A stretch of DNA of 64,000 nt from Streptomyces sp. NBC_00510 (GTDB taxonomy: Bacteria; Actinomycetota; Actinomycetes; Streptomycetales; Streptomycetaceae), in NCBI GenBank assembly GCA_036013505.1, contig CP107851.1, forward strand, positions 5,110,001 to 5,174,000, given 5' to 3'. The translations under genes and the position numbers were made by a program. Positions 11,500 to 46,949 of the stretch are shown piece by piece. The stretch's first letter is position 1. The number at the start of each line of letters is the position of its first letter. The notes below the pieces were generated by a model. That model had not been told where the DNA came from. It made no database searches and worked only from the letters and a program-made list of their open reading frames with translations.

Positions 11500-12948
11500 G
11501 TGACGACAGTGGCAGCACCGCAGCGCTTCCGTGAGTTCAAGATGCCGGACGTCGGCGAGGGACTCACCGAGGCCGAGATCCTCAAGTGGTACGTCAAGCC
11601 CGGCGACACCGTCACCGACGGCCAGGTGGTCTGCGAGGTGGAGACCGCCAAGGCCGCGGTCGAGCTTCCGATCCCGTTCGACGGGGTGGTGCACGAGCTG
11701 CGCTTCCCCGAGGGCGAGACCGTCGACGTCGGCACCGTGATCATCGCCGTCGACACCGGCGAGGGCGAGGGCGGCGAACCGGCCGCCGGGGCCGCACCGG
11801 AGCCGGCCGCCGCGCCGGCCCCCGCCGCGGAGCCGGCGCAGAAGCGCCAGCCCGTGCTGGTCGGCTACGGCGTCGCCGCCTCGTCGACCAAGCGCCGGGC
11901 GCGCAAGCAGCCCGCCGTTCCGGCGCAGACCGGGGCGCAGCAGGCCGTCCAGGGTGAGCTGAACGGCCATGCCCCGGCGCCGGCCGCCGCCACCCCGGCC
12001 CCGGCGGCTCACGCCGGGTTCGCCCCCGCCGAGGTCCGCCCGCTGGCCAAGCCGCCGGTGCGCAAGCTCGCCAAGGACCTGGGCGTGGACCTGGCCGCGG
12101 TCACCCCGACCGGGCCGCAGGGCACGATCACCCGCGAGGACGTCCAGAAGGCGGCGGCCCCCGCCGCCGCGCCGGTCGCCCCCGCGCAGGTCACCGCCGC
12201 CCCGGCGGCGGTACCGGCTCCCGCCGCCCTGGCCCCCGCCGCGGGCGCGCTGGAGACCCGCGTCCCGATCAAGGGCGTCCGGAAGGCGACGGCCGCGGCC
12301 ATGGTCGCCAGTGCCTTCACCGCGCCGCACGTGACCGAGTTCGTCACCTTCGACATCACCCGGACCATGCGGCTCGTGCAGGAGCTCAAGACCGACCCGG
12401 CCTTCGCCGGGCTCAAGGTCAGCCCGCTCCTGCTGGTCGCCAAGGCCCTGCTGGTCGCGATCCGCCGCAACCCGGAGGTCAACGCCGCCTGGGACGAGGC
12501 CAACCAGGAGATCGTCCACAAGGGCTACGTCAACCTGGGCATCGCCGCCGCCACCCCGCGCGGGCTGATCGTCCCCAACATCAAGGACGCCCAGGGCAAG
12601 ACCCTGCCCGAACTGGCGTCCGCCCTCGGCGACCTGGTCGCCACGGCCCGTGAGGGCAAGACCTCGCCGGCCGACATGCAGGGCGGCACGGTCACCATCA
12701 CCAACGTCGGCGTCTTCGGCATCGACACCGGCACGCCCATCCTCAACCCCGGGGAGTCCGCGATCCTCGCCTTCGGCGCGGTCAAGGAGCTGCCCTGGGT
12801 CCACAAGGGCAAGGTCAAGCCCCGCCAGGTCACCACGCTCGCGCTCTCCTTCGACCACCGCCTGGTCGACGGCGAGCTCGGCTCCAAGGTCCTCGCCGAC
12901 GTCGCGGCGGTCCTGGAGTACCCCAAGCGCCTGATCACCTGGGCCTGA
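11500..12948 (+). CDS. bkdC: Branched-chain 2-oxoacid dehydrogenase E2 (dihydrolipoyl acyltransferase)
   Basis: 482-residue E2 core of the Bkd complex. Domains in order: one lipoyl domain (about 12-85) with lipoylated Lys51 in ETAKAAV; an Ala/Pro-rich swinging linker; an E3/E1-binding domain (VRKLAKDLGVDLAAVTPTG, near 180-215); a second Ala/Pro linker; and the catalytic chloramphenicol-acetyltransferase-like domain (about 250-482) with the active-site FDHRLVDG near the end. GTG 11500 is preceded by GAGGAGAGG. No E3 gene is nearby; the complex would use the shared dihydrolipoamide dehydrogenase. Followed by a strong hairpin terminator. Confidence 0.96.
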   Translation: MTTVAAPQRFREFKMPDVGEGLTEAEILKWYVKPGDTVTDGQVVCEVETAKAAVELPIPFDGVVHELRFPEGETVDVGTVIIAVDTGEGEGGEPAAGAAPEPAAAPAPAAEPAQKRQPVLVGYGVAASSTKRRARKQPAVPAQTGAQQAVQGELNGHAPAPAAATPAPAAHAGFAPAEVRPLAKPPVRKLAKDLGVDLAAVTPTGPQGTITREDVQKAAAPAAAPVAPAQVTAAPAAVPAPAALAPAAGALETRVPIKGVRKATAAAMVASAFTAPHVTEFVTFDITRTMRLVQELKTDPAFAGLKVSPLLLVAKALLVAIRRNPEVNAAWDEANQEIVHKGYVNLGIAAATPRGLIVPNIKDAQGKTLPELASALGDLVATAREGKTSPADMQGGTVTITNVGVFGIDTGTPILNPGESAILAFGAVKELPWVHKGKVKPRQVTTLALSFDHRLVDGELGSKVLADVAAVLEYPKRLITWA

Positions 12949-39788: not shown

Positions 39789-39831
39789 TGGTCCAGACCT
39801 ATTGACCACCTGGTCCAGACCTTTCTACTCT
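39789..39831 (+). promoter_or_regulatory. Chitinase promoter with twin TGGTCCAGACCT elements
   Basis: Direct repeats TGGTCCAGACCT at 39789-39800 and 39811-39822 (22 bp apart) surround the -35 TTGACC (39802-39807); the -10 TACTCT (39826-39831) follows after 18 bp. This is the known arrangement of Streptomyces chitinase promoters. The elements also fit the DasR consensus (ACTGGTCTAGACCACT), so repression by DasR relieved by glucosamine-6-phosphate is expected. Confidence 0.85.
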
Positions 39832-41659: not shown

Positions 41660-43129
41660 TCAGCCGGTGGCGCAGGACGCGCCGTCGAGGGTGAAGCCGG
41701 TGGGCGGGGCGGAGACGCCGGGCCGGGTGCCGACCAGCCCGAAGCTGACCGAACCGCCCGCCCGCACCGACCGGTTGTAGCCCTTGGCCCGGGCGGTGAC
41801 CGATCCATCGCGCTGGGCGAAGTCGGCGTCCCACATCTGCGTGACGCGCCGGCCGTCGGAGTACCTCCAGCCGACCCTCCAGTCGTCGAGGTCCTTGCGG
41901 GTCGTCAGGGTGACCGTGGCCTGGAAGCCGTCGTACCACTGCTCGTTCACCTCGTAGGTGATCGTGCAGGACGGCGCCGGTTTCACCGGGGCGTCGTGCG
42001 CGGGCGGCGCGGCGGAGGACGGTGCGCGATCGGCGGCGGGGATGGTGTGCTCGGCGGCGGAGGGCCCGATCTCCTCGGGGAACGGCGCGCTCTCGGCGGG
42101 CTCCGGTGCTCCGGAGGCGCCCGGCGACGGCAGCGGGGGGAAGCCGGAACCGTCCGGGGCGGTGCCGTCCTTGCCGCCCTGGGCCGTCGGAAGGGCCTGG
42201 GCGGACCGGGGGGCGGAGTCGTCGGTGGTGACCAGGGCCGTCAGGCAGATCACGGCGGCCAGCACCGCGACCGCCCCGGCCACGGCGGCCCTGCCCCCGG
42301 GGACGCGGGTCCTGGCCCGCGCGGCACGGGCGGCGCGCGCGGCCCGCCGCGACGGCGGGGCCGCGGCGGCGTCCCGGCCGGCGGTCCGGCGCCGGGCCTC
42401 CAGATAGGCGGGCCCCGCCCAGCCCAGCACCCCTTCGGCCAGTGCCTCGGGCAGTCCGCCGCCGAACGGGGTCAGGCACACGGCCGCCCGCGCGCACTCG
42501 GCGCACCCGCGCAGGTGCCGGCGCAGGTCCTCGGGTGCCGCCTCGACGGGCATCCGGGTGGCCGCGTCCAGCAGCCGGGCGTACCCCTGGCACTCGTCGG
42601 AGGGCGGTTCCTCCTGGTGGGCGCGGAGGCAGCGGTCGCGGAAGTCCTCGCGGGCCCGGTCGATCTCCCGCTCCACCGCGGTGACGTCGACGCCCAGCGC
42701 GTGTGCGGTCACGGCCGCGGGGCGGCATTCGACCTCGGTGGACCACAGCAGTGCCGCGTCCGGTTCCGTCATGGCGCGCAGTCCGCGCAGGGCCAGCGGT
42801 TCCGGGCGCGGTGCCCTGCCCCGGCGTGCGGCGCGTTCCGCGTTGAGCCAGATGCGGAACTCCGGCTGCAGGCTGTCGCCCTCGCCCCGGGCCTGCCAGG
42901 ACGCGGCGGTGTCCCGTACGGCGGTCAGCAGCAGCGGCAGGGGCGGCAGGCCCGGGCCGGGTGTGCCGTCCGCCGCGTCGGGTGTCAGGTCCAGGCCGCG
43001 GTCGAACGCGTCGGCGGCCAGCCGGCCGCCGTCCTCGGGGGAGAGCGAGCACAGCTGGGCGAAGCACAGCGCTTCCGCCCAGTACTCGGACAGCGGTACG
43101 GCCTCGGGGACCGGGGCTGGGGCAGTCAT
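41660..43129 (-). CDS. Membrane protein: sigma-like region, anti-sigma zinc finger, TM helix, extracellular CBM2
   Basis: 489 residues. N-terminal half is cytoplasmic: a degenerate sigma-70 region-4-like stretch (about 118-170, PDAALLWSTEVECRPAAV then GVDVTAVEREIDRAREDFR), followed by a textbook anti-sigma zinc motif C-x24-H-x3-C-x2-C (Cys near 180, HLRGCAEC near 205-212). After a basic Ala/Arg stretch a single membrane helix (about 280-300, AAVAGAVAVLAAVICLTALV) leads to a Pro/Ser/Ala-rich outside linker and a C-terminal CBM2-type cellulose-binding module (about 385-489, WYDGFQATVTL, WDADFAQRDGSV). This resembles the RsgI logic, anti-sigma inside and carbohydrate sensor outside. ATG 43129 is preferred over TTG 43144. 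Target sigma factor unknown. Confidence 0.82.
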   Translation of the reverse strand: MTAPAPVPEAVPLSEYWAEALCFAQLCSLSPEDGGRLAADAFDRGLDLTPDAADGTPGPGLPPLPLLLTAVRDTAASWQARGEGDSLQPEFRIWLNAERAARRGRAPRPEPLALRGLRAMTEPDAALLWSTEVECRPAAVTAHALGVDVTAVEREIDRAREDFRDRCLRAHQEEPPSDECQGYARLLDAATRMPVEAAPEDLRRHLRGCAECARAAVCLTPFGGGLPEALAEGVLGWAGPAYLEARRRTAGRDAAAAPPSRRAARAARAARARTRVPGGRAAVAGAVAVLAAVICLTALVTTDDSAPRSAQALPTAQGGKDGTAPDGSGFPPLPSPGASGAPEPAESAPFPEEIGPSAAEHTIPAADRAPSSAAPPAHDAPVKPAPSCTITYEVNEQWYDGFQATVTLTTRKDLDDWRVGWRYSDGRRVTQMWDADFAQRDGSVTARAKGYNRSVRAGGSVSFGLVGTRPGVSAPPTGFTLDGASCATG

Positions 43130-43300
43130 CGAGTGGTGAACCAACCCTTCGGCGTCGGGAAGGCGGTTGCGCCTGCGCCTGGTGGTGCGGGGAGCCTTTC
43201 ACGGTTTCCACACAAGTAGCAAGGCGCGACTTCGTTTGCCGAAGGGGTAGTTGGGGCGTGAGCGGTGATGTCCGCTTCTGCCCCCTCGTGAACGGCGGGA

Positions 43301-43831
43301 TCAGCCGTGGTGGACGAAGCGGGCGGCGACCGAGAGGGTCGCGGCGCCCTTGATCATGCCCATCCGGTTCCAGGTGAGGCCGAAGTCGGCCCGGTCGACG
43401 ACCGCATCGGCGGTGAGCACGACGGCGTCGGCGGAGGAGGACTCGACGCGCCCGGTGAGGGCGAGCGGGCGGGTGGTGCCGCGGACGGTCAGCTCGCCGT
43501 CGACGGAGAGGGCGCCGTCGGTGCCGGCGGTGACCCGGCGGGCGGTGTAGACGATCGCCGGGTGGGTCGCGACGTCGAGGAAGTCGGCGGAGTGCAGGTG
43601 GGTGTCGCGCTGCTTGTTGCCGGTGTCCAGGGAGGCGGCGTCCACGGTCAGGGTGCCCTGCCCGGTGCCGTCGGCCGCGAGTTCGCCCTCGCCGCCGACC
43701 TGGGTGAACGCGCCCTTCACGGTGGCCATGCCCCACATCGTCCGGTGCGTGAGCCGCACGGCCGAGCCCGCGGGGTCGAGGGCCCAGGAGCCCGTGTGCA
43801 GACCGGTGGGGGTGGTCGTCGAGTCGCTCAT
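43301..43831 (-). CDS. YceI family protein
   Basis: 176-residue lipocalin-like YceI barrel that binds isoprenoid-type lipids (polyprenyl chains) in the family. Typical segments: GSWALDPAGSAVRLTHRTMWGMATVKGAF, GEGELAADGTGQGTLTVDAASLDTGNKQRDTHLHSADFLDV, and VDRADFGLTWNRMG near the end. No signal peptide, so cytoplasmic here, as for other streptomycete YceI proteins. ATG 43831 follows AAGGGTG. Divergent from a marR gene whose product probably represses it. Confidence 0.9.
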   Translation of the reverse strand: MSDSTTTPTGLHTGSWALDPAGSAVRLTHRTMWGMATVKGAFTQVGGEGELAADGTGQGTLTVDAASLDTGNKQRDTHLHSADFLDVATHPAIVYTARRVTAGTDGALSVDGELTVRGTTRPLALTGRVESSSADAVVLTADAVVDRADFGLTWNRMGMIKGAATLSVAARFVHHG

Positions 43832-43847
43832 GGGGTGTCGCACCCTT

Positions 43848-43903
43848 CAATAGCTCGCCAGATATTAAGTAGCCAGTTAGACAATAGCTGGCGTTGGTAC
43901 CCT
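43848..43903. promoter_or_regulatory. yceI-marR divergent operator region
   Basis: CAATAGCT occurs twice, at 43848-43855 and 43882-43889, each followed by a Gly-Cys-rich tail (CGCCAG and GGCG). GCCAG (43872-43876) and CTGGC (43888-43892) form an inverted repeat around TTAGACAATAG. A TACCCT -10 at 43898-43903 stands 7 bases before the marR GTG. Binding by the local MarR protein is inferred. Confidence 0.45.
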
Positions 43904-43910
43904 GGGCAAT

Positions 43911-44417
43911 GTGACGGCGGAGATCCACGCGGAGACGGACGGCCGGTGCCCGGACACCGCCGACCTGCACCTGCTCGCGCGGTGGGACGCGCTGCAATCG
44001 GGCTTCCGGCGGCTCACGGACCAGTTGCTGGCGGACGTCGAGGCGCGGTCGGGGCTGGCCCCGTCCTCGTTCCAGGCGCTGTGGTTCCTGATGACGACGC
44101 CGGAGCGGTCGGCGCCGATGTACCGGCTCGCGGGGACGCTGGGCTTCACCACGGCGGGCACCACCAAGGTCGCCGACCGCCTCACGGAGGCGGGGCTCAT
44201 CGAACGCCGTCCCTGCCGGGAGGACCGGCGCGTCACCCTGGCGGTGCTGACCGAACGCGGCCTTCAGGTGGCGATGACGGCGGCGCTCACGCTGGCCGAC
44301 GCGCTGCGTGAGCGCGTGGTCGGGCCGCTGGGCGGTGCGGAGCGGTTCGACGCGCTCGCGGCGGCGGTCACCGCCGTCGACCCGGAGCCGCCGTCCCGGC
44401 CCCCGTGCGGGGGCTGA
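43911..44417 (+). CDS. MarR-family regulator
   Basis: 168-residue MarR protein. Winged helix: LAPSSFQALWFLMTTPERSAPMYRLAGTLGFTTAGTTKVADRLTEAGLIERRPCREDRRVTLAVLTERG (about 45-120), with the DxRxxxxxLT wing clearly visible. One Cys (Pro-Cys-Arg) lies in the wing and another near the C-terminus, so redox sensing is possible but unproven. The start GTG 43911 has no ribosome site and follows a -10 by 7 bases (leaderless type). Divergent from yceI, its likely target. Confidence 0.9.
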   Translation: MTAEIHAETDGRCPDTADLHLLARWDALQSGFRRLTDQLLADVEARSGLAPSSFQALWFLMTTPERSAPMYRLAGTLGFTTAGTTKVADRLTEAGLIERRPCREDRRVTLAVLTERGLQVAMTAALTLADALRERVVGPLGGAERFDALAAAVTAVDPEPPSRPPCGG

Positions 44418-44420
44418 GGC

Positions 44421-45169
<749 letters not shown>

Positions 45170-45182
<13 letters not shown>

Positions 45183-45931
45183 CCCATCAGACAGACCAGC
45201 AGCGCCGCGGCCGGGAGCGCGGCGGCGTACGACCACTGGGCGCGCGAGGCGGTGACCTCGTCGATCACCGGCATGCTGCCGGCGTAGCCCCGGCTGACCA
45301 TGGCCAGGTGGACGCGTTCGCCGCGCTCGTAGGCGCGGATGAACAAGGCGCCCGCGGACTTGGCGAGCACGCCCCAGTGGCGCGGGCCGCGCGCCTCGAA
45401 GCCGCGCGAGAGGCGGGCGACGCGCATCCGGCGCATCTCGTCGGTGATGACGTCCCCGTACCGGATCATGAACGAGGCGATCTGCACCAGCAGCGCCGGC
45501 AGCCGCAACCGCTGCAGGCCGAGGAGCAGTTCGCGCAGCTCGGTGGTGGACGCCAGCAGGACGGAGGCGGCGACGCCGAGAGTGCCCTTGGCGAGGATGT
45601 TCCAGGCCCCCCACAGGCCGTTCACGCTGAGGGAGAGGCCCAGCACCTCGGTGCGCGGGCCCTCGGCGACGAACGGCATGAGGAAGGCGAAGGCGACGAA
45701 GGGCACCTCGATCAGCAGCCGCCGCAGCAGGAATCCGGCCGGGACGCGCGCCACGGCGGCGACCGTGGCCAGCAGCACCGCGTACAGGCCGAAAGCCCAC
45801 ATCGCCGTGCGCGGGGTGGAGACCACCACCAGGACGAAGCAGAAGACCGCGGCGATCTTGCACTGCGGGGGCAGCGCGTGCACCGGCGAGTGGCCGTGCC
45901 GGTAGAGCCGGTGGGCGTGCCCCGCTCCCAC
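45170..45931 (-). CDS. cbiQ: ECF transporter transmembrane T-component
   Basis: 253 residues with five or six membrane helices and the two short Ala-Arg-Gly coupling motifs of EcfT proteins: MRVARLSRGFEARG near 150-163 and the later AMVSRGYAG. It couples the ATPase to the substrate-binding subunit in the membrane. Start GTG 45931 lies two bases after the upstream cbiN stop. N-terminal GHAHRLYRHGHSPVH is His-rich, which may help in metal handling. Confidence 0.92.
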
Positions 45932-45933
45932 GG

Positions 45934-46269
45934 CTAGGCCTTCTCCGCGCGCGGACGGCGGCGGACGACCCAGAAGACGCCGGTGCCGAGCGCGAGGGTG
46001 GCGCCGACGCCGATCACACCGGCGAGGCCGCCGGAGAGCCGGGCGTTGCCGACGTCCTCGGTCTGGTAGTCGGCGAGCGGGGAGTCCTTGGCCGCGTGGT
46101 CCTCGGCCTTCTTGTCGATGCCGTGGTCCGCGGCGACCTTCTCCAGGCCGTCCGGGCTGGCGGAGGCGTAGTAGCTCACGAATCCGGCGAGCAGCACGGC
46201 GGCGATCAGGCCGGCGATCCACAGCGGCCGTATGCCGCCGCGCTTGGGGGTGTTGGTCACGGCCGCCAT
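45934..46269 (-). CDS. cbiN: ECF transporter small subunit, CbiN/PDGLE type
   Basis: 111 residues with two membrane helices (IAGLIAAVLLAGFVSYYA about 18-35, and LAGVIGVGATLALGTGVFWVV about 82-102). The segment ASPDGLEKVAADHGI is the PDGLE motif of CbiN-like subunits, and the loop between helices faces outward. It stabilises CbiM and is needed for metal uptake in the family. Its start codon overlaps the cbiM stop (ATG 46269). Confidence 0.92.
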   Translation of the reverse strand: MAAVTNTPKRGGIRPLWIAGLIAAVLLAGFVSYYASASPDGLEKVAADHGIDKKAEDHAAKDSPLADYQTEDVGNARLSGGLAGVIGVGATLALGTGVFWVVRRRPRAEKA

Positions 46270-46949
46270 CAGACGGTCGCCTCCTTGAGCTCCAGCGGGC
46301 GGCGCAGGTCACGGGCGCCGTGGACGAGGTCGGGGCGGACGGCGATCACGGCGCCCACCGTCGCCGCGGTGATCACCGCCTCGCCGATGCCGATCAGGAC
46401 GTGCACGCCGACCATGGCGGTGAAGACCTTGCCGAGAGAGACGTCGGTCGTCCCGCCCAGCGCGTAGATCCCGGTGAAGGCGACCGCCGCCGCGGGGACG
46501 GAGAGCAGGGCCGCGACGAAGGCCGCGCCCGTCACCCCGCCACGTCCGTTCGGCAGCACCTTGACCAGCCCGCGGAAGACGGCGTAGGCGACGACCACGG
46601 TGACGATCGCCATGTCGGTGATGTTCACGCCGAGCGCGGTCAGGCCGCCGTCGGCGAAGAGCACGCCCTGGATCAGCAGGACGACGGACACGCACAGCAC
46701 CCCTGTGTAGGGGCCGACGAGTATCGCCGCCAGCGCGCCGCCGAGGAGGTGGCCGCTGGTGCCGGCGGCCACCGGGAAGTTGAGCATCTGGACGGCGAAG
46801 ATGAACGCCGAGACGAGTCCGGCCAGCGGCGCGGTGCGCTCGTCCAGTTCGCGCCGCGCACCGCGCAGGCTCACCGCTACGGCTGCGGCCGCGACGGCAC
46901 CGGTCGCCACCGACACCGGGGCGTCGATGAATCCGTCGGGTACATGCAT
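46269..46949 (-). CDS. cbiM: ECF transporter metal-binding S-component
   Basis: 226-residue CbiM/NikM-type substrate-binding membrane protein. The N-terminus MHVPDGFIDAP provides the metal site (amino group, His2 and a later His in the family), and the GTSGHLLGGALAAILVGPY segment supplies the conserved His-Leu-Leu-Gly. Six to seven helices. It heads the cbiMNQO operon. Whether Co2+ or Ni2+ is carried cannot be read from the protein; the Nur box upstream favours nickel. Confidence 0.93.
   Translation of the reverse strand: MHVPDGFIDAPVSVATGAVAAAAVAVSLRGARRELDERTAPLAGLVSAFIFAVQMLNFPVAAGTSGHLLGGALAAILVGPYTGVLCVSVVLLIQGVLFADGGLTALGVNITDMAIVTVVVAYAVFRGLVKVLPNGRGGVTGAAFVAALLSVPAAAVAFTGIYALGGTTDVSLGKVFTAMVGVHVLIGIGEAVITAATVGAVIAVRPDLVHGARDLRRPLELKEATV

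What the first reader, a model, noticed from the sequence alone, without database searches (positions are those of the whole stretch)
41660..43129. RsgI-like membrane sensor: degenerate sigma region plus zinc anti-sigma finger inside, CBM2 outside
Carbohydrate-sensing anti-sigma proteins with outside binding modules are described for clostridial cellulosome control (RsgI/SigI). Here a Cx24Hx3Cx2C finger and a sigma region-4-like segment are fused to a membrane helix and a cellulose/chitin-binding CBM2, next to a CBM2 chitinase. It could sense polymer contact and release or sequester a sigma factor or a cleaved fragment. I know of no described actinobacterial system of this form.
Basis: partly seen in the sequence, partly recalled or inferred. 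Interest (0 to 1): 0.7.

Follow-up and report, generated by a model that had tools for sequence, protein, structure and literature searches.

The report
Sugar-sensing membrane sigma/anti-sigma fusion protein
A soil actinobacterium carries a membrane protein that holds a divergent gene-switching sigma part and its zinc-finger inhibitor inside the cell and a cellulose/chitin-type binding module outside; it is a new branch of a sparsely studied known group (ECF52-like), and its genes share a promoter-like signal that makes the idea easy to test.

Summary
Window 41660-43129 (-) encodes 489 aa: a sigma2-sigma4-like region, a ZAS zinc finger (C180-x24-H205-x3-C209-x2-C212), one membrane helix (about 282-300, N-in), a Pro-rich linker and a CBM2 outside. 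It is not an RsgI. It is homologous to actinobacterial sigma/anti-sigma fusions of the ECF52 kind (SCO4117 of Streptomyces coelicolor; a SCO4117-like gene lies elsewhere in this genome), so 'no described actinobacterial system' is wrong. What is new: the protein lies in a well-supported divergent half of that family (30 of 61 rows) in which all zinc ligands persist but an Asp of sigma2, invariant in the 20 intact relatives, is lost. Outside domains there are ricin-type, ricin+CBM2, or CBM2. Its genes share a bipartite upstream element, CTTGYY-N14-YGTGVRAR, with fixed spacing: 26 of 30 divergent genes, 0 of 32 other members. A strict form occurs 19 times in 12 chosen genomes, 17 of them upstream of these genes; a form looser at one base is not specific. 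I read this as a self-contained, probably autoregulated surface-polysaccharide sensor. Whether the divergent sigma part still works with RNA polymerase, or is a sigma mimic, is open. The chitinase neighbour was seen only in the nearest relative.

The parts
41660..43129 (-). CDS of the sigma-like/ZAS/TM/CBM2 fusion protein, 489 aa plus stop
42830..43114 (-). sigma2-like region, residues about 6-100, divergent
   Evidence: AlphaFold model: best VIA-align matches are ECF sigma2 regions (SigH 6koo_F Z 8.1, 72 residues); profile of the divergent rows matches M. tuberculosis SigE over profile positions 9-163 (E 0.0034); no Pfam Sigma70_r2
42605..42802 (-). sigma4-like region, residues about 110-175
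   Evidence: Pfam Sigma70_r4_2 sub-threshold here, above cut-off in relative L077; hhalign to intact relatives
42380..42604 (-). ZAS zinc anti-sigma region, C180-H205-C209-C212, residues about 176-250
   Evidence: ligands invariant in 61/61; profile matches ChrR at E 0.045
42230..42286 (-). membrane helix, residues about 282-300, N-in/C-out
   Evidence: hydropathy and charge
41969..42229 (-). Pro-rich extracytoplasmic linker, residues 301-387
   Evidence: Pro fraction 0.21 over 90 residues after the helix
41663..41968 (-). CBM2 domain, residues 388-489, with W398, W433, Y451 aligned to the aromatic triad of the Cex CBM2
   Evidence: Pfam CBM_2; alignment to 1exg, E 3.1e-17; positions checked; that the triad binds cellulose is recalled
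43196..43223 (-). promoter-like element CTTGCT-N14-CGTGAAAG, beginning 94 nt upstream of the start codon
39852..41573 (+). neighbouring GH18 chitinase with CBM2 (start codon uncertain), context only
39789..39822 (+). two perfect TGGTCCAGACCT direct repeats upstream of the chitinase, context only

Best explanation
A one-protein surface-polysaccharide sensor of the ECF52 kind. Inside, a divergent sigma2-sigma4 part is held by a zinc-finger anti-sigma (ZAS) part in the same chain; a single membrane helix and a Pro-rich stalk present a CBM2 outside. Contact with cellulose or chitin is proposed to start proteolysis (or a change of shape) that frees the sigma part, which then drives its own promoter, CTTGYY-N14-YGTGVRAR, and perhaps a few further genes. 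Shown here: the parts, the topology by sequence, homology to ECF52-like fusions, the conserved zinc ligands, and the shared upstream element. Inferred: ligand, proteolysis, sigma activity and autoregulation.
For: Order of parts equals that of SCO4117/ECF52. hhalign of the divergent half against intact relatives E 7e-44. The profile of the divergent half matches SigE from sigma2 through sigma4 (E 0.0034) and ChrR's ZAS (E 0.045). Of the AlphaFold model's VIA-align rows the first 18 are sigma factors or the sigma-like PhyR, and row 19 is a chain of a Thermus RNA polymerase complex, presumably its sigma. Zinc ligands 61/61. Window against its nearest orthologue: omega 0.17 for ZAS, 0.34 for sigma4. 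Upstream element at >=13 of 14 positions in 26 of 30 divergent genes, 0 of 32 other members (also with 1200 nt searched), 2 of 600 shuffles; with other gaps from 10 to 18 at most 2 of 30. Strict pattern: 19 matches in 12 genomes chosen because they carry divergent genes, 17 of them upstream of such genes, 5 for the reversed control. Positive autoregulation is described as common in ECF sigma factors (PMC5826349).
Against: An Asp of sigma region 2.2 present in 20 of 20 intact relatives is absent from 30 of 30 divergent rows, as are two further invariant sigma2 residues. Pfam finds Sigma70_r2 above cut-off in 20 of 20 intact rows and not at all (E<=0.1) in 30 of 30 divergent rows. In the window lineage sigma2 (omega 0.86) and CBM2 (1.11) change fast (one pair, few changes). 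The looser element pattern matches 60 of 61 genomes and exceeds its reversed control in only 8 of 61. Of 28 divergent genes known in the 12 genomes, the strict pattern finds 17 and misses the window's own. Protease action and sigma activity were not testable. I did not identify any carbohydrate gene with the element; the two strict matches outside the family were not examined.
Confidence: 0.5

Rival explanations
1. Pseudo-sigma: the sigma part has lost RNA polymerase binding and serves as a sigma mimic or co-inhibitor. The released fragment, or its ZAS, would bind another sigma or anti-sigma (for example the SCO4117-like protein), and the shared element would be read by another factor.
For: Loss of the sigma2.2 Asp in 30/30 with full keeping of the zinc ligands; no Pfam sigma2 in 30/30; PhyR, a sigma-like protein listed as an anti-anti-sigma factor, is among the best fold matches; an intact lectin-sigma gene and one with weak or no sigma2 match stand head to head in two genomes (L094, L096).
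Against: An element with -35/-10-like spacing found almost only at these genes points to a dedicated, self-read promoter. The intact members do not carry it (0/32 other members), which argues against the SCO4117-like sigma reading it. sigma2 is under purifying selection in six other divergent pairs (omega 0.20-0.43; in the ricin pairs that stretch includes N-terminal extensions). All fold scores are middling.
Confidence: 0.32
2. A plain RsgI-type anti-sigma for a separate sigma factor: only the ZAS matters and the sigma-like part is a remnant.
For: Same logic of CBM outside and anti-sigma inside as RsgI (PMC4711584); ZAS is the best-kept part in the window/nearest-orthologue pair.
Against: No sigma gene among the immediate neighbours and no RsgI domain in Pfam at E<=1; sigma4 and the fold of sigma2 are kept.
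Confidence: 0.1
3. A surface adhesin whose inner part is decaying and no longer regulates.
For: sigma2 and CBM2 change fast in the window lineage; one relative (L040) has lost membrane helix and CBM, though it keeps the inner part.
Against: Zinc ligands 61/61, selection on ZAS and sigma4, and the conserved upstream element.
Confidence: 0.06

Closest known systems
ECF52 sigma factors (SCO4117, Streptomyces coelicolor)
   Same: sigma part, zinc finger, membrane helix, Pro-rich stretch and carbohydrate-binding domain in one chain; Actinobacteria (PMC5826349, abstract and passages). A SCO4117-like gene with NPCBM and intact Sigma70_r2 is in this genome (L004).
   Different: CBM2 instead of NPCBM; divergent sigma2; a shared upstream element that the intact members lack.
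ECF53 and ECF48 groups
   Same: Described as sigma factors fused C-terminally to membrane anti-sigma parts; for ECF52 and ECF53, some with predicted carbohydrate-binding or glycosyl hydrolase domains (passages of PMC8999054 and PMC10766802).
SigI/RsgI of Clostridium thermocellum
   Same: Paralogous membrane proteins with different outside carbohydrate-binding modules controlling sigma activity, and autoregulated sigma promoters (passages of PMC4711584 and PMC12203970).
   Different: RsgI and SigI are separate proteins; no RsgI-type domain is found here; RsgI has a periplasmic domain, autocleaving in most, where this protein has a Pro-rich linker.
PhyR (sigma-like anti-anti-sigma factor)
   Same: A sigma-like part that may act without being a sigma; similar fold in the model.
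   Different: PhyR carries a receiver domain (recalled), no membrane part, no ZAS (recalled); the match is of fold only and of middling score.

Membership tests
ECF52-like sigma/anti-sigma fusion | Recognisable ECF sigma2 domain (Pfam Sigma70_r2) | tested here: not met
   Absent at E<=1 in the window protein and at E<=0.1 in 30 of 30 divergent rows, though homology to sigma2 is shown by profiles and supported by fold
ECF52-like sigma/anti-sigma fusion | sigma4 region | tested here: met
   By homology: hhalign; relative L077 passes the Pfam cut-off; sub-threshold in the window protein itself
ECF52-like sigma/anti-sigma fusion | ZAS zinc finger next to sigma4 | tested here: met
   C180/H205/C209/C212 invariant 61/61; no Pfam zf-HC2 hit in the window protein
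ECF52-like sigma/anti-sigma fusion | Membrane helix and Pro-rich extension | tested here: met
ECF52-like sigma/anti-sigma fusion | C-terminal carbohydrate-binding domain | tested here: met
   CBM_2 E 7.7e-26; aligned to 1exg
ECF52-like sigma/anti-sigma fusion | Assignment by the published ECF group models | not testable with these tools
   Models not held; the two ECF classification papers tried were not held
RsgI | RsgI-type N-terminal anti-sigma-I domain | tested here: not met
   No such Pfam family at E<=1
RsgI | Partner sigI gene next to it | tested here: not met
   Immediate neighbours are a GH18 chitinase, YceI and MarR genes; genes further away were not scanned for sigma domains
RsgI | Autocleaving periplasmic domain | tested here: inconclusive
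   The linker is Pro-rich and matches no Pfam domain; autocleavage itself was not testable
RsgI | C-terminal carbohydrate-binding module outside | tested here: met

The most novel reading that the evidence does not exclude
A lineage of single-protein, lectin- or CBM-topped sigma factors whose altered sigma part reads a promoter class of its own, CTTGYY-N14-YGTGVRAR, which in the genomes searched stands (in its strict form) almost only in front of the lineage's own genes: several parallel self-feeding sensor circuits per cell, each looking at a different surface sugar.
Probability: 0.38. Interest if true: 0.72.

Novelty: new variant of a known kind. Interest (0 to 1): 0.52.

Why it matters
How Streptomyces and its kin sense insoluble polymers such as cellulose and chitin before they have soluble sugars is, to my knowledge, poorly known. 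This family offers a direct cell-surface route, with different binding modules in different paralogues, like the clostridial SigI/RsgI set but in one protein. The shared upstream element gives a ready reporter: one plasmid test says whether the divergent sigma part is active and what switches it on. It also puts a sigma lineage that has lost an otherwise invariant sigma2 residue under test, either as a new promoter specificity or as a sigma turned into a mimic.

Tried and rejected
RsgI membership was rejected (no RsgI domain, no sigI among the immediate neighbours). A functional link to the chitinase was not supported: of four loci compared, the chitinase is next door only in L038 (97% identical); L039 and L041 show only CBM2-to-CBM2 matches and L040 none (L039 ends with its contig just upstream of the gene). 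The other CBM2-clade loci listed (L072-L077) show no obvious chitinase, but that ORF list was filtered by base composition, showed only first residues and had no family search. The chitinase has two perfect TGGTCCAGACCT repeats and no such match, even with two mismatches, lies near the sigma-CBM gene (in the whole window 17 matches against a mean of 10.4, reached by 4 of 100 shuffles).

The first whole-genome pattern for the element, TTGTGN{5,9}GTGAAA, gave 4 own-genome matches, 1 of them this gene, and 1 reversed-control match. TTGTGN{6,9}CGTGAAA gave 11 matches in 7 genomes, 6 of them at CBM2-clade genes, control 2. CTTGTTN{13,17}TGTGCRA gave 13 matches in 6 genomes, 11 at family genes, control 3; none in the window's own genome. 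The looser CTTGYY-N14-YGTGVRAR matched 60 of 61 genomes and exceeded its reversed control in 8 of 61, so only the stricter form ending in AA is specific; that form misses the window's own site by one base. The pattern was read off the sites it then finds, so its presence at these genes is circular; its rarity elsewhere is not. Of the 30 divergent genes, L039 and L051 lack it (10 of 14), L040 and L050 are weak (12 of 14); at 12 of 14 the shuffles give 49 of 600, so 12 is weak evidence. In pairwise tests the window's upstream 32-mer exceeded all 30 shuffles for five relatives (L072-L076) but not for L077, L041, L040, L039, L050.

AlphaFold models are of modest confidence (mean pLDDT 62.5 and 66). 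Foldseek gave no match at E<=0.001; VIA-align Z 8.1 at best, which for helical proteins is middling, and helical terpene synthases also appear in the lists. dN/dS was by Nei-Gojobori in a GC-rich genome with few synonymous changes: only the ranking of domains is worth something.

Full report
What is there. The ORF at 41660-43129 on the minus strand encodes 489 residues. Pfam sees only CBM_2 (residues 388-486, E 7.7e-26) with confidence; Sigma70_r4_2 is sub-threshold (E 0.17). A single hydrophobic helix (about 282-300) follows an Arg-rich stretch, so the N-terminal part should be inside and the CBM2 outside; the 90 residues after it are 21% proline. The CBM2 aligns with the Cex module (1exg, E 3.1e-17), and W398, W433, Y451 stand where that module has Trp (that these Trp bind cellulose is recalled).

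The inner part is sigma2-sigma4-ZAS. In the window's own genome (10.15 Mb, one contig) three paralogues match the inner part: two with a ricin-type lectin (L002, L003) and one with NPCBM and an intact ECF sigma (L004). L004 has a TetR-like gene beside it (read by eye from its ORF list), as SCO4117 has atrA in S. coelicolor (PMC5826349); I take it as the SCO4117-like gene. Relatives came from 35 genomes of the genus, one scan of genome contigs (5 loci: three Actinacidiphila species, Streptomyces tagetis and a Streptacidiphilus) and 61 genomes of the family. I took a selection of the matches, and 61 rows were aligned and put on a maximum-likelihood tree (quick search, SH-aLRT only, midpoint root). 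One branch (99) separates 30 rows from 31. The 30 hold all 11 CBM2 rows, one ricin+CBM2 row (L051), one truncated row (L040) and 17 of the 30 ricin rows; the other side holds 13 ricin, 9 NPCBM, 5 soluble and 4 rows without a recognised outside domain (domains by Pfam for all rows). The label changes 6 times on the tree, the least possible, against 28.6 in shuffles. L051, with both domains, branches next to the CBM2 rows (support 92), as expected if CBM2 was added to a lectin form and the lectin then lost; its branch is long.

Are the 30 still sigma factors? Their profile aligns with that of 15 intact relatives over 243 columns (hhalign E 7e-44). Alone, it finds M. tuberculosis SigE across sigma2 and sigma4 (E 0.0034), then the anti-sigma ChrR over the ZAS (E 0.045); a profile of only six rows had SigE first at a mere 0.29. 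The intact profile finds SigE at 8.8e-10 and, over the ZAS, 3hug_B at 8e-5 (recalled to be the anti-sigma RslA). In the VIA-align comparison of the second, the first 18 rows are sigma factors or PhyR and row 19 is presumably a sigma chain (best Z 8.1, SigH, 72 residues); Foldseek itself gave nothing at E<=0.001. Column by column (20 rows that I call intact, 9 intermediate, 30 divergent, and 2 counted apart), the four zinc ligands are invariant in 61 of 61. The Asp at L004 position 93 (region 2.2; that it contacts the RNA polymerase clamp is recalled) is present in 20 of 20 intact and 0 of 30 divergent rows; R86 and Y119 of L004 likewise 20 of 20 against 0 of 30. Others are only partly lost: E97 is kept in 10 of 30, R117 in 19 of 30. 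Pfam Sigma70_r2 passes its cut-off in 20 of 20 intact rows and appears in 0 of 30 divergent rows; Sigma70_r4_2 passes its cut-off in 1 of 30 divergent rows, L077.

Selection. Between the window gene and its nearest orthologue (82% identical) omega is 0.86 for sigma2, 0.34 for sigma4, 0.17 for ZAS and 1.11 for CBM2. In six other divergent pairs (L074/L076, L072/L073, L072/L075, L002/L044, L078/L079, L086/L089) sigma2 lies at 0.20-0.43, in the two intact pairs at 0.32 and 0.46; in the ricin and intact pairs the stretch includes N-terminal extensions. The inner part is therefore kept, least so at sigma2 in the window lineage.

A shared upstream element. Aligning upstream regions of CBM2-clade genes at unrelated loci showed a conserved block. 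It resolves into CTTGYY-N14-YGTGVRAR. Scanning 400 nt before the inner domain, 26 of 30 divergent genes match at 13 or more of 14 positions (28 at 12 or more), against 0 of 32 other members and 2 of 600 shuffles (49 of 600 at 12 or more); with any other gap from 10 to 18 at most 2 of 30 reach 13. With 1200 nt searched the other members still give 0 of 32. The strict form ending in AA occurs 19 times in 12 genomes, all chosen because they carry divergent genes; by the coordinates, 17 of the 19 lie upstream of and in line with divergent-clade genes (exceptions G010:C113:46730 and G029:C1:727463, not examined); the reversed control gives 5. It finds 17 of the 28 divergent genes that I count in those genomes. 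The window's own site (43196-43223, CTTGCT ACTTGTGTGGAAAC CGTGAAAG) ends in AG and is found only by the looser form, which has chance matches in 60 of 61 genomes and exceeds its reversed control in 8. Fixed spacing without a palindrome looks like a promoter more than an operator; which sigma reads it is not known. That it stands at the divergent genes and not at the SCO4117-like ones, and in its strict form almost nowhere else, is easiest to explain if the divergent proteins read it themselves.

Known systems. ECF52 is described as sigma, zinc finger, membrane region, Pro-rich stretch and carbohydrate-binding domain, limited to Actinobacteria; proteolytic release has been proposed and a truncated form studied (PMC5826349, abstract and passages). 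ECF48/52/53 are reviewed as fusions with membrane anti-sigma parts (PMC8999054, passages), and carbohydrate-binding or hydrolase domains in ECF52/53 are called computational predictions without experiment (PMC10766802, passages). The primary classification papers were not held. In the entries listed (top rows only, save, which list all) I saw no paper titled or abstracted on a CBM2 form, a sigma2-divergent lineage, or this promoter element; the library holds only openly licensed papers, and apart from five papers read in passages I saw listings only.

Distribution. In 79 genomes drawn across the class, 25 have a match to the divergent profile at 1e-5; all listed matches below 1e-90 lie in genomes of the window's own family. 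The wider sigma-ZAS kind thus reaches across the class, the divergent lineage is narrow in this sample.

Verdict. A real, conserved membrane sensor by sequence; a new variant of the ECF52 kind. Mechanism: contact-controlled release of an autoregulating divergent sigma is my first choice at about one half, a sigma mimic second at about one third. The checking changed counts, not these odds.

Noticed in passing
L094 3266-4816 (-) and 4822-6798 (+); L096 3254-5008 (-) and 4902-6911 (+): In two genomes an intact lectin-topped sigma-ZAS gene (Pfam Sigma70_r2 39.4 and 37.2 bits) stands head to head with one whose sigma2 match is sub-threshold (L094, 18.5 bits) or absent (L096): a possible sigma/pseudo-sigma pair. 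First-start ORF ends overlap or nearly touch, so true starts are uncertain.
   Followed up: partly
L013-L017: Five genomes of the same genus carry sigma-ZAS proteins of 305-378 aa that end after the ZAS, with intact Sigma70_r2 and no binding domain: a soluble form of the family.
   Followed up: partly
L040 12352-13113 (-), tRNA-Arg 12093-12166 (-): A CBM2-clade relative has lost membrane helix and CBM; a tRNA-Arg gene and, by eye, an integrase-like reading frame follow its 3' end, suggesting an integrated element.
   Followed up: partly
L051 5749-7929 (+): Streptacidiphilus member with both ricin-type lectin and CBM2 outside, branching next to the CBM2 clade: an apparent intermediate in the swap of sensing domain.
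   Followed up: partly
window 39789-39822: Two perfect TGGTCCAGACCT direct repeats before the chitinase, the form recalled for Streptomyces chitinase promoters.
   Followed up: partly
window 44421-46949 (-): ORFs that by eye look like a cobalt/nickel-type transporter set (ATPase, membrane, small and CbiM-like proteins); not scanned.
   Followed up: no
window 43301-44417: YceI and MarR genes upstream of the sensor; neither gave a tblastn match in the nearest relative's locus L038, where the sensor lies next to the cbiO-like gene, so they are an insertion here or a loss there.
   Followed up: no
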